Below, piece by piece: positions 9,900-29,824 of a DNA stretch of 64,000 bases. A program made the position numbers and the translations under genes. Below the pieces are notes generated by a model that ran no database searches, had not been told where the DNA came from, and saw only the letters and a program-made list of their open reading frames with translations. Positions within the stretch are counted from its first letter, which is position 1; the number at the start of each line of letters is the position of its first letter. The DNA is taken from assembly GCA_033344815.1 (NCBI GenBank), contig JAWPMR010000001.1, forward strand, positions 1,102,136 to 1,166,135, in the 5' to 3' direction. The DNA comes from Paracoccaceae bacterium (GTDB taxonomy: Bacteria; Pseudomonadota; Alphaproteobacteria; Rhodobacterales; Rhodobacteraceae).

Positions 9900-11345
9900 T
9901 TAGTTGACCAGAGTGGCGGCGGCCGCTGCTGCGGCGGATTCTACACCAAACATGTTGGCGATACCCAACACCATGATTGCGGCAGATGCCATGAGGAAGC
10001 CCCAGAGCACTGTGTTATTGCCGCCCGAATCCAACCCTTCCTGAGTCTCGTCACCAAAATACATATAAAAAACAATGCGCAAGTAGTAATAGGCCCCAAT
10101 CACGGAGGCGATGACTCCGGCGATTGCCAGCCACGCGAGGTTGGCCTCATAGGCGGCGCGCAGGACATAGAATTTACCAAAGAACCCAAGCATCGGTGGC
10201 ACGCCAGCAAGACTGAAGAGCAGCACCAGCATGGCCAGGGCCTTGCCCGGTTCGCGTTTGGCATAGTTATTCAACGCGCCGATTTCTGTGACCGGTTGAC
10301 CATCTTTTTCCATCATCAGGATAAAAGCGAAGGTACCGACGTTCATTGTCACATAGATCGCCATGTAGATCAGCATGGCCTGTACGCCGAGCACGGTTCC
10401 AGCCGCCAGCCCCATGAGGGCATAACCCATATGCGCAATCGACGAAAATGCCATCAGGCGTTTGATGTTTGTTTGACCAATCGCGGCGACCGCACCGAGG
10501 AACATGGACAGGACCGAAAGAAGCGCAACGATCTGGCTCCAATCCGCTACTGCATTTCCAAAGGCGTCATGCAGCACGCGCGCAAACAGACCCATGGCAG
10601 CAACTTTGGGTGCCGTAGCAAAAAATGCCGTGACTGGCGTGGGCGAGCCTTCATACACGTCCGGGGTCCACATGTGAAACGGCACTGCGGAAACCTTGAA
10701 GGCCATACCGGAGATCAGGAAGACCAGACCGAAGAGCAGCCCAAGCGAAACCTCGCCGTGCTGCGCGGTTTCGATGATGCCTGAGAACATTGTTGTGCCA
10801 GCGTATCCATAAACCAGTGACGCGCCATAGAGCAGCAGGCCAGAGGATAGTGCACCGAGGACGAAGTATTTGAGCCCCGCTTCGGTTGATTTCACCGAGT
10901 CGCGGCGCAGGGAAGCAACCACATAAAGCGCCAGAGATTGCAGTTCCAACCCCATGTACAGCGCCATAAGGTCATTGGCGGAGACCATGACCATCATGCC
11001 CACGGCACTAAGCGCGACGAGCAGGGGATATTCAAACCGAAGCAAATCGCGCGACTTCATGTAACCTTCGGACATGACGAGCACTGCTGCCGCTGAGAGC
11101 AGGATTGTCACCTTAGCAAAACGCGCGAACCCGTCCAGCATCAACATGCCGTTAAAGGCCGTCGCGGACCCCTCGCCTGTTGTCGCAATCCAAACGCCCA
11201 AAGCTGCCATGACTGCCGCCGTCATCCACAACAAAGTCGAGGCCAGCCCATCCTTGGAGGTGTAGACGGCCACCAGAAGCATAACCATCGCGTAGACGGC
11301 CAGCAGGATTTCCGGCAGCACAAGTGTCAAATCAGCGGATACCAT
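9900..11345 (-). CDS. nuoN: NADH-quinone oxidoreductase subunit N
   Basis: This 481-residue antiporter-like membrane subunit of complex I has about 14 hydrophobic segments. The proton-channel residues lie in contexts typical of NuoN, including [13 protein letters not shown] and a lysine helix in [32 protein letters not shown] is the family signature and [17 protein letters not shown] follows as expected. It is the last nuo gene, starting 12 bp after nuoM ends and followed by birA. It forms one of the three proton-pumping modules in the inner membrane. Confidence 0.97.
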
Positions 11346-11357
11346 ATCGTCCGTCCT

Positions 11358-12899
11358 TTAATTCGCAGCCAACTGAGAGGCGGCCTCAGCCGCAGCCAGT
11401 GCCGTATCATAGTTCCCGACCAGTGCCGCAACAGCCGGACCGGTGATGTCCAGTACAAGGGCTGGATACACACCAAGCAACAGCGTCATTGCCACCAACG
11501 GCGCAAAAATCCAGCGCTCGCGTGGCGTCATGTCACTAATGGACTTTAGGCTTTCCTTGATCAGATCGCCCATGACCACGCGACGATAGAGCCACAAGGC
11601 ATAAGCTGCCGAAAAGATCACACCAGTGGTCGCAACGGCCGCCACCCAGGTATTCACTTGGAAAACAGCCATCAACGTCAGGAATTCTCCGACGAATCCA
11701 GAGGTGCCCGGCAAGCCAACATTCGCCATGGTGAACAGCATGAAGATCAGTGCGTAGGCCGGCATCCGGTTCACAAGACCGCCGTAGGCATCAATGTCGC
11801 GTGTGTGCATGCGGTCATAGATCACGCCAACACATAGGAACAACGCGCCCGAGATAAAGCCATGGCTGATCATTTGGAAAATCGCGCCGTCCACACCTTG
11901 TTGGTTTGCGGCAAAAATACCCATCGTTACAAAACCCATATGAGCAACCGACGAATAGGCGATCAGTTTTTTCATGTCTTCCTGAACAAGCGCGACCAGT
12001 GACGTGTAAACGATCGCAATCGCGGACATCCACAGGATCATCGGGGACCATATTTCCGCGGCCACAGGGAACATCGGCAGCGAAAAGCGGATAAAGCCAT
12101 AACCGCCCAGTTTCAACAGGATCGCCGCTAGCACCACAGATCCAGCCGTCGGGGCCTGTACGTGTGCGTCCGGCAGCCAGGTGTGTACGGGCCACATCGG
12201 CATCTTGACCGCGAAACTGGCAAAGAACGCCAGGAACATGAGCGATTGCAAGCCGCCAACCACTGTTACGCCCGCCACCGAGAAGCTCTCAAATGCAAAC
12301 TGGTGGTTTAGCAGAACCTCGATATCGGTTGTGCCTGCATCCGCAAACATCCCCACCATCGCAACCAGCATCAGAACTGAGCCGAGAAAGGTATAAAGGA
12401 AGAATTTAAAGCTCGCATAAATCCGGTTCGCCCCGCCCCAAATCCCGATGATCAGGAACATCGGGATGAGTCCGGCCTCGAAGAACAGGTAAAACAATAC
12501 TAGATCGAGCGCCATGAACACGCCCAGCATCAGCGTTTCCAAGAGCAGGAAAGCGATCATGTATTCCTTGACGCGCGTGCTCACATTCCAGGAGGCCGCG
12601 ATAACCAGCGGCATCATGAAGGTTGTCAGCATCACGAACAGCACCGAAATGCCATCCACGCCCATTTTATATTGCAGGCCTAACAACCACGGCGCTTGTT
12701 CTACGAACTGAAAGCCGGTGTCGTTTGGATCAAATTCAGCGAGAATAAAGAGCGATATCAGGAAGGTCATTGAGGTGGCGGCCATGGCCAGCCACTTGGC
12801 ATTCCGGTTGGCCGCTTCATCATCGCCGCGCAGGAATACAGCAAGGATCAACGCCGCCATTGCGGGAATGAAGGTCACAATCGACAAGAGGTTGTCCAT
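11358..12899 (-). CDS. nuoM: NADH-quinone oxidoreductase subunit M
   Basis: NuoM is a proton-pumping antiporter-like subunit of complex I. The 513-residue polytopic protein carries the ND4 signatures: a glutamate helix in [37 protein letters not shown], and [15 protein letters not shown]. Its ATG shares bases with the nuoL stop (TGATG at 12897-12901), which indicates translational coupling, and nuoN follows after 12 bp. Length is normal for the family. Confidence 0.97.
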
Positions 12900-28890: not shown

Positions 28891-28931
28891 TGCGACGTCT
28901 CCTCAGCGAACGGTTTTCTGAAAACGCCCAA

Positions 28932-29468
28932 TCATCGGACGATTGTGCCGGTGCGGCGGATTTTGCGTTGAAGCTGCATGATGCCATAAAGCAGAGCCTC
29001 AGCCGTCGGCGGGCAGCCCGGCACATAGACGTCTACCGGAACGATGCGATCACAGCCACGCACCACCGAATAAGAGTAATGATAGTAGCCCCCACCGTTG
29101 GCGCAGGATCCCATCGAAATGACATAACGCGGCTCCGGCATCTGATCATAAACCTTGCGGAGTGCGGGTGCCATTTTGTTGGTCAGCGTACCGGCCACGA
29201 TCATCAAATCAGACTGGCGCGGGCTGGCCCGTGGTGCTGTTCCAAAACGCTCCATGTCATAGCGCGGCATCGCCGTGTGCATCATCTCAACGGCGCAACA
29301 GGCCAATCCGAATGTCATCCAGTGCAGCGAACCCGTGCGCGCCCAGTTGATGATGTCCTCGGTCGAGGTCAGCAGGAACCCCTTATCTTGCAATTCACGG
29401 TTGAGATCCTGCGTTGCAACCTCACGATCGGCACCTGCGATTGCGGCTCCTGCAGCGGCTACTGCCAT
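28932..29468 (-). CDS. nuoB: NADH-quinone oxidoreductase subunit B
   Basis: NuoB holds cluster N2, the last iron-sulfur centre before quinone. In the 178-residue product the ligands are Cys57 and Cys58 (ACCAVEMMH), Cys122 (GSCANGG) and Cys152 (VPGCPP). The ATG at 29468 has GGAG about 7 bases upstream and lies within the end of nuoA (10-base overlap). A longer frame to 29489 would only add MEKRSAG. The N-terminus AVATQ-like ([19 protein letters not shown]) is typical of Rhodobacterales. Confidence 0.96.
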
Positions 29469-29824
29469 TCCAGCGCTCCTTTTTTCCACTCATAGGCAAA
29501 CCCGATGGTCAGCACGGCCAGAAACACCATCATTGACCAGAAGCCGACCATGGAAATATCCTGAAAGGCGACGGCCCATGGGAACAGGAAGGCGATCTCA
29601 AGGTCAAAGATGATGAAGAGGATCGACACCAGGTAAAACCGCACGTCGAATTTCATCCGCGCATCGTCAAAAGCATTGAACCCGCACTCATAGGCGGAGA
29701 CCTTTTCAGGGTCAGGATTGCGCACGGCCAAAATGACGGCCGCGAGGATCAAAACAAGCCCTAAGCCAATGGCCACAGCCAGAAAAACAAGAATGGGAAG
29801 GTATTCCCGCAGCATATCGTCCAA
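29459..29824 (-). CDS. nuoA: NADH-quinone oxidoreductase subunit A
   Basis: NuoA is the three-helix membrane subunit at the quinone entry and the first gene of the operon. The 121-residue product has [18 protein letters not shown], the loop [21 protein letters not shown] in part (quoted as [15 protein letters not shown], with its conserved Cys) and [10 protein letters not shown] clear AAAGGAGCC ribosome-binding site lies upstream of the ATG. The promoter is proposed at 29896-29924. Confidence 0.96.

What the first reader, a model, noticed from the sequence alone, without database searches (positions are those of the whole stretch)
9900..29824. nuo operon with fourteen interleaved non-nuo ORFs
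Seen: the minus-strand operon nuoA-N carries extra ORFs after nuoC (two), nuoD (one), nuoE (one), before nuoF (one), between nuoF and nuoG (four), nuoG and nuoH (one), nuoI and nuoJ (two), nuoJ and nuoK (one), and nuoK and nuoL (one). At least ten junctions are 1-4 base stop/start overlaps. Established: small unidentified ORFs are known in alphaproteobacterial nuo operons and several mitochondrial-type accessory subunits exist in alphaproteobacterial complex I. Inference: some of these are supernumerary subunits, assembly factors or redox-repair proteins. The number and the tight coupling make the whole set worth studying as one system.
Basis: partly seen in the sequence, partly recalled or inferred. 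Interest (0 to 1): 0.75.

Follow-up and report, generated by a model that had tools for sequence, protein, structure and literature searches.

The report
Complex I operon with interleaved passengers
In one family of mostly marine bacteria the gene cluster for the main respiratory enzyme also carries a small set of conserved extra genes and a changing set of passengers, and one of the conserved extras belongs to the family of a protein seen inside a photosynthetic complex, which makes its unknown job directly testable.

Summary
The observation largely holds. A complete nuoA-N operon (minus strand, 9900-29824) carries 14 candidate non-nuo ORFs, though none lies after nuoD as listed. They are not one system. 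Tier 1 is syntenic across Rhodobacteraceae and absent from the other alphaproteobacterial nuo loci examined: CMD protein(s) coupled between nuoI and nuoJ, DUF5337, DUF5333, a two-helix protein c between nuoE and nuoF, and a lipoprotein gene between nuoG and nuoH that has decayed here. Tier 2 is patchy but constrained in the genus (a, DUF3291, h). Tier 3 (b, e, f, m, n) has few or no relatives. In other genomes the slots hold unrelated cargo. The main result concerns c: same family and slot as protein-O of the Dinoroseobacter RC-LH1 photocomplex; an LH1-RC structure of Rhodovulum sulfidophilum also holds a member. Yet c is as common in non-phototrophs (17 of 26 loci) as in phototrophs (12 of 16), so its home is the nuo operon. 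Its C-terminal domain resembles the NusA AR2 docking domain, is shared with NuoE, and has replaced NuoE's own in three of 19 genus members. Three passenger families tested have no chain in the solved Paracoccus complex I. Assembly, maintenance or adaptor roles (inferred) fit better than stable subunits.

The parts
9900..11345 (-). nuoN
   Evidence: NCBIfam NuoN
11358..12899 (-). nuoM
   Evidence: NCBIfam subunit M
12899..15055 (-). nuoL
   Evidence: NCBIfam subunit L
15063..15188 (-). n: 41-aa ORF with one hydrophobic helix (by eye) between nuoK and nuoL; sparse
   Evidence: relatives in 2 of 18 genus loci, 0 of 122 family loci; pN/pS 0.45 on two pairs
15193..15498 (-). nuoK (ATG start at 15498; the list gives a TTG at 15543)
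   Evidence: Oxidored_q2
15495..16055 (-). m: 186-aa protein with a signal-like start (by eye) between nuoJ and nuoK; sparse
   Evidence: 1 of 18 genus loci (L214), 1 of 122 family loci; 4-nt overlap with nuoJ
16052..16654 (-). nuoJ
   Evidence: NCBIfam subunit J
16651..17070 (-). l: CMD-family protein (PF02627), the common copy
   Evidence: Pfam 2.2e-14; CMD in this slot in 71 of 76 named and 24 of 46 sampled family loci, 0 of 71 other alphas; pN/pS 0.098
17067..17453 (-). k: second CMD-family protein (PF02627)
   Evidence: Pfam 2.3e-20; 8 of 103 CMD ORFs are closer to k than to l; pN/pS 0.09 on 10 pairs
17450..17944 (-). nuoI
   Evidence: NCBIfam NuoI
17946..18983 (-). nuoH
   Evidence: NCBIfam NuoH
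18990..19340 (-). j: decayed remnant of a lipoprotein gene between nuoG and nuoH
   Evidence: 43% of family model matched; pN/pS 0.76; intact in L005
19337..21352 (-). nuoG
   Evidence: NCBIfam NuoG
21420..21827 (-). i: DUF5333 (PF17267); signal-like start (by eye), mostly helical
   Evidence: Pfam 2.9e-37; AF2 pLDDT 91; 68 of 76 named, 21 of 42 sampled, 0 of 73 other alphas
21950..22273 (-). h: small lipoprotein-like protein (ATG at 22273; the listed start is 22318)
   Evidence: 40 of 76, 9 of 42, 0 of 73; pN/pS 0.35
22279..22776 (-). g: DUF3291 (PF11695)
   Evidence: Pfam 8.1e-51; 32 of 76, 11 of 42, 1 of 73; pN/pS 0.165
22819..22974 (-). f: ORF without support
   Evidence: no relative in 18 genus loci or 118 family loci
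22984..23190 (-). e: 68-aa Cys-rich ORF with one hydrophobic helix (by eye); sparse
   Evidence: 1 of 18 genus loci (L220), 0 of 118 family loci
23196..24491 (-). nuoF
   Evidence: NCBIfam NuoF
24504..24752 (-). d: DUF5337 (PF17272), hydrophobic, probably two helices (by eye)
   Evidence: Pfam 6.2e-30; 70 of 70 named, 34 of 42 sampled, 0 of 72 other alphas
24773..25444 (-). c: protein-O family; two-helix hairpin, flexible linker, C-terminal HhH/AR2-like domain
   Evidence: 8yy9_O E 1.3e-32 and 9wqv_a 7e-27; hairpin rmsd 1.3 A over 52 residues on 8yy9_O; 49 of 70, 29 of 42, 0 of 72
25515..26540 (-). nuoE, with a C-terminal domain of the c type
   Evidence: CTD lies in the c clade, 100/100
26638..27861 (-). 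nuoD
   Evidence: NCBIfam subunit D
27858..28100 (-). b: orphan ORF (listed start 28142; a start at 28100 gives a 1-nt overlap with a)
   Evidence: no relative in 18 genus loci or 103 family loci
28100..28273 (-). a: 57-aa hydrophobic protein after nuoC, probably two helices (by eye)
   Evidence: 17 of 18 genus loci, the 18th being cut before nuoC; 19 of 63 named, 4 of 40 sampled, 0 of 70 other alphas; pN/pS 0.084
28273..28890 (-). nuoC
   Evidence: Complex1_30kDa
28932..29489 (-). nuoB
   Evidence: Oxidored_q6
29459..29824 (-). nuoA
   Evidence: Oxidored_q4

Best explanation
This is the expanded nuo operon of Rhodobacteraceae, and its extra genes form two populations. (1) A conserved minority (CMD protein between nuoI and nuoJ, DUF5337 and c between nuoE and nuoF, DUF5333 before nuoG, ancestrally a lipoprotein between nuoG and nuoH) are co-expressed factors that assemble, maintain or position complex I rather than stable subunits. 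c is of the protein-O family: its membrane hairpin inserts at the edge of quinone-handling membrane complexes (seen in RC-LH1), and its tethered C-terminal AR2-like domain docks to the same partner as NuoE's C-terminal domain. The photosynthetic complex has borrowed a nuo-operon protein, not the reverse. (2) The other passengers are lineage-specific cargo in tolerant gaps of a presumably well expressed operon. Shown here: gene content, synteny, constraint, decay of j, homology and slot identity of c with protein-O, its presence in non-phototrophs, the domain replacement, and the lack of chains for three passenger families in the Paracoccus structure. Inferred: the assembly or docking function, the direction of borrowing, and the cargo reading of the rest.
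Confidence: 0.55

Rival explanations
1. All passengers are hitchhikers: the nuo operon of this family is simply permissive, and even the conserved ones are kept for unrelated housekeeping roles that profit from co-expression.
For: Varied cargo in the same slots; j decayed in the window and absent or partial in 43 of 125 family loci, some of the partial ones being divergent rather than decayed; c lost or gained repeatedly; conserved members missing from some family loci (L124, L127-L130 have none, L126 only g).
Against: DUF5337 in 70 of 70 named and 34 of 42 sampled loci in the same slot; CMD with 4-nt overlaps to nuoI in 74 of 88 and to nuoJ in 79 of 88 single-CMD loci and core-like constraint.
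Confidence: 0.25
2. The conserved passengers are true but weakly bound supernumerary subunits, lost during detergent purification.
For: Family-specific synteny and coupling. Protein-O itself is traced only in its hairpin in RC-LH1, so flexible parts escape maps (PMC12079452 section 2.3). Paracoccus maps had fragmented unassigned densities (passages).
Against: The 2.3 A Paracoccus structure assigns no such chain; the extra density discussed in the passage appears to be an artefactually bound complex III. Gel-band MS named NDUFS4, NDUFS6, NDUFA12 types and a PIMT in the main text, with further proteins only in a supplement that I did not read (PMC8115037 section 6). No complex I chain among PDB matches of window c, Paracoccus i and l.
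Confidence: 0.15
3. c is a photosynthesis protein that was inserted into the nuo operon and is now a relic in non-phototrophs.
For: Found in RC-LH1 of two genera; 17 of 19 genus genomes searched have Photo_RC.
Against: As frequent in non-phototrophs (17 of 26 against 12 of 16), present in Paracoccus denitrificans; four of 16 phototroph loci lack it; pN/pS 0.32, purifying.
Confidence: 0.05

Closest known systems
Protein-O of the Dinoroseobacter shibae RC-LH1 (PDB 8yy9/8yz2/9jpb chain O)
   Same: Same slot between nuoE and nuoF; same two-helix hairpin (1.3 A over 52 residues), linker and C-terminal domain (E 1.3e-32).
   Different: Window c lacks the Cys10/Cys59 pair, and the held single-contig genome has no Photo_RC gene, so here it has no known photosynthetic partner; a plasmid could be missing from the assembly.
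Unidentified reading frames of Paracoccus/Rhodobacter nuo operons (recalled, not read)
   Same: Same kind of arrangement; Paracoccus L067 has c, d, i, j and two CMD genes.
   Different: The window adds a, DUF3291, h and the orphans b, e, f, m, n, and has lost an intact j.
NusA AR2 / helix-hairpin-helix docking domain
   Different: 20% identity, no NusA context; resemblance only, membership not claimed.
CMD / PcaC family (PF02627)
   Same: Pfam and PDB relatives 2af7, 4g9q.
   Different: NCBIfam PcaC cut-off not reached (67.5 and 44.7 against 155.7 bits); no CxxC of AhpD type.

Membership tests
Protein-O (RC-LH1 accessory protein) family, for c | Gene between nuoE and nuoF | tested here: met
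   Window order; D. shibae gene in the same place (PMC12079452 section 2.3)
Protein-O (RC-LH1 accessory protein) family, for c | Two-helix N-terminal hairpin, linker and C-terminal GVGPKLE domain, homologous along its length | tested here: met
   phmmer residues 12-219, E 1.3e-32; hairpin superposition
Protein-O (RC-LH1 accessory protein) family, for c | Cys10-Cys59 disulfide seen in D. shibae (not treated as defining) | tested here: not met
   No Cys in the window hairpin; the pair occurs in other members, some of them non-phototrophs
Protein-O (RC-LH1 accessory protein) family, for c | Bound in RC-LH1 | not testable with these tools
   No Photo_RC in the held genome
Complex I supernumerary subunits, for c, i, l | Chain present in the solved Paracoccus complex I | tested here: not met
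   No chain of 8qby among PDB matches for window c, Paracoccus i, Paracoccus l; Paracoccus c, d, j and first CMD not searched
CMD family PF02627, for k and l | Pfam gathering score | tested here: met
   72.8 and 53.6 against 23 bits
AhpD-type thiol CMD, for k and l | CxxC redox motif | tested here: not met
   0 of 104 ORFs, last 125 residues
DUF5337 PF17272 (d), DUF5333 PF17267 (i), DUF3291 PF11695 (g) | Pfam gathering score | tested here: met
   103.3, 127.6 and 171.8 bits against 27, 27 and 23.5
NusA AR2-like domain, for the NuoE/c C-terminal domain | Fold | tested here: inconclusive

The most novel reading that the evidence does not exclude
c is a physical tether made by the respiratory operon. 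Its hairpin wedges into membrane complexes that exchange quinone (RC-LH1 where present, another partner elsewhere), while its tethered AR2-like domain docks to the same partner as, or directly to, the matching domain at the end of NuoE, thereby holding the photosynthetic reaction centre or another quinone enzyme next to complex I. The replacement of NuoE's domain by the c type in three genus members would be a natural domain swap showing that the two docking domains are interchangeable.
Probability: 0.12. Interest if true: 0.85.

Novelty: new variant of a known kind. Interest (0 to 1): 0.5.

Why it matters
Extra ORFs in alphaproteobacterial nuo operons have long been known (recalled) without a function. 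This comparison separates a small conserved core worth testing (CMD, DUF5337, DUF5333, c) from probable cargo. It bears on a question that the protein-O paper leaves open, whether its gene was the bacterium's own or recruited: it is a nuo-operon gene as frequent in non-phototrophs as in phototrophs. If the tether reading holds, respiration and photosynthesis would share a dedicated linking protein encoded by the respiratory operon.

Tried and rejected

Limits: gene calls are HMM or phmmer matches on stop-to-stop ORFs at E up to 1e-3; loci without both flanking nuo genes in order were dropped before each count. Of the 135 class genomes with a NuoG match (of 144), 74 other-alphaproteobacterial loci were fetched; of 119 family genomes other than the window's own, 46 were fetched. 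Named and unnamed sets may hold the same genome twice (L005 and L212 share a contig length). Median pS is 0.40-0.76, so pN/pS is a ranking, not a rate; nuoE and nuoK were not in that list. Cargo clusters are single-linkage at blastp E 1e-4 and only one representative of each was named. The window genome is held as one contig; its lack of Photo_RC could be a missing plasmid, as 17 of 19 genus genomes have the gene. On checking I corrected: a is in 17 of 18 genus loci, not 18; the denominator for b; and the number of intact j copies.
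Full report
What is there. The minus strand of 9900-29824 holds nuoA to nuoN in order (ORFs; family matches), followed by birA and a coaX-like gene (by eye). Between them lie 14 candidate non-nuo ORFs, which I call a to n in order of transcription. None lies in the 97-nt nuoD-nuoE gap, and the nuoF-nuoG gap holds five candidates instead of four. Eight junctions overlap by 1-4 nt on the listed starts, ten if the better starts of b and nuoK are used.

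What the ORFs are. Pfam places d in DUF5337, g in DUF3291, i in DUF5333, and k and l in the CMD family; the rest have no Pfam family above cut-off. NCBIfam finds that the C-terminal part of c matches the C-terminal part of one NuoE model, and more weakly ribosomal L21, S2 and phasin PhaH models, all below those models' cut-offs.

Comparison. I fetched 80 named Rhodobacteraceae loci, 46 of the 119 other family genomes searched, 74 loci of other alphaproteobacterial families and 18 genus mates. Presence in the right gap, as named / sampled family / other alphaproteobacteria: d 70 of 70, 34 of 42, 0 of 72; CMD 71 of 76, 24 of 46, 0 of 71; i 68 of 76, 21 of 42, 0 of 73; j (any trace) 71 of 79, 29 of 46, 0 of 73; c 49 of 70, 29 of 42, 0 of 72; h 40 of 76, 9 of 42, 0 of 73; g 32 of 76, 11 of 42, 1 of 73; a 19 of 63, 4 of 40, 0 of 70; m 1 of 76, 0 of 46, 0 of 71; b, e, f, n none. 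In the genus c, d, g, h, i and a CMD gene are in 18 of 18, a in 17 of 18 (the 18th stretch is cut before nuoC); e and m in one each, n in two, b and f in none. The gaps agree: more than 150 nt between nuoE and nuoF in 107 of 112 Rhodobacteraceae loci against 2 of 72 others, between nuoF and nuoG 107 of 118 against 9 of 73, between nuoG and nuoH 105 of 125 against 4 of 73, while nuoA-nuoB, nuoB-nuoC, nuoK-nuoL, nuoL-nuoM and nuoM-nuoN stay closed in most loci (open in 3 of 89, 7 of 97, 3 of 122, 1 of 118, 0 of 117).

Constraint. Median pN/pS of the window genes against genus mates: 12 nuo genes 0.03-0.18; a 0.084, k 0.09, l 0.098, g 0.165; d 0.25, c 0.32, i 0.33, h 0.35; n 0.45 (2 pairs), e 0.69 and m 0.69 (1 pair each), j 0.76. 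The window's j is a decayed copy: relatives encode a roughly 125-residue lipoprotein that covers at least 80% of the model in 82 of 125 family loci, while in the window 43% matches. In the genus L219 and L221 are also degenerate, 16 of 18 look intact.

Coupling. Among 123 Rhodobacteraceae loci with nuoI and nuoJ in order, the window included, 88 have one CMD gene between them, 8 two, 27 none. In single-copy loci the nuoI stop overlaps a start by 4 nt in 74 of 88 and the CMD stop does so in 79 of 88. None of 104 CMD ORFs has a CxxC in its last 125 residues, so an AhpD-like thiol chemistry is unlikely.

Cargo. Unassigned gap ORFs in 127 Rhodobacteraceae loci, the window included, fall into many slot-specific clusters: a lipoprotein-like protein between nuoD and nuoE in 39 loci, a sulfotransferase-like protein between nuoC and nuoD in 19, a secreted-looking protein between nuoJ and nuoK in 7, GFA, DUF4259, MAPEG and lumazine-binding-like genes in 4 to 6 each (Pfam names of one representative each). 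This variety is the main reason not to treat the passengers as one system.

Protein c. It matches chain O of the D. shibae RC-LH1 complex (8yy9, E 1.3e-32) and chain a of 9wqv (E 7e-27), hairpin and C-terminal domain included; 9wqv is an LH1-RC of Rhodovulum sulfidophilum. A third entry, 9lts of D. shibae, holds a 76-residue chain with a weak match (E 0.0099). The D. shibae paper (section 2.3 read) places protein-O's gene between nuoE and nuoF, reports its hairpin between reaction centre and LH1, calls its function unknown and leaves its origin open. The nearest relative of the R. sulfidophilum chain among 395 family genomes (61% identity) also lies between nuoE and nuoF. Yet c occurs in 17 of 26 non-phototroph and 12 of 16 phototroph family loci (p 0.73), and in Paracoccus denitrificans. 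So the gene belongs to the nuo operon, and its use in RC-LH1 is secondary or additional (inference). Against simple vertical descent: c is absent from 13 of 42 sampled loci without clustering on the nuo tree, and only its hairpin, not its C-terminal domain, tracks NuoG distances (r 0.23 and 0.03, n 62).

Subunits or not. P. denitrificans carries c, d, i, j and two CMD genes, but its complex I structure contains the core, NDUFS4, NDUFS6, NDUFA12 and a PIMT (PMC11522691, passages; PMC8115037 section 6). Searches with window c, Paracoccus i and Paracoccus l returned no chain of that entry. In the window genome NDUFS4 and NDUFA12 lie outside the window, at least 0.8 Mb from the operon on the contig. 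I therefore favour assembly, maintenance or adaptor factors for the conserved few, and cargo for the rest; I saw no experiment on the function of any passenger.

Noticed in passing
25515-26540 and 24773-25444: The NuoE C-terminal domain of the window is of the neighbouring gene's (c) type, unlike that of 16 of 19 genus genomes: a domain replacement between adjacent genes.
   Followed up: yes
18990-19340: Decayed lipoprotein gene inside an otherwise strongly constrained operon; also degenerate in genus mates L219 and L221 and partial or undetected in three Ruegeria loci (L031, L038, L041).
   Followed up: partly
nuoD-nuoE gap of L047 and 38 other loci: A lipoprotein-like family without Pfam model sits here in 39 of 127 Rhodobacteraceae loci but not in the window.
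   Followed up: partly
L007, L019, L022, L045, L086, L088, L095, nuoE-nuoF gap: A second ORF with the same C-terminal domain but a soluble, phasin-looking N-terminal half (by eye, not tested) lies beside c.
   Followed up: no
whole genome G000: 17 of 19 genomes of the genus have reaction-centre genes, the window's own does not in the held single contig; either a loss or a missing plasmid.
   Followed up: partly
9079-9885 and 8293-9072: birA and coaX follow nuoN in many of the alphaproteobacterial loci fetched (167 and 122 of 201 hold a match), a conserved but unexplained neighbourhood.
   Followed up: no
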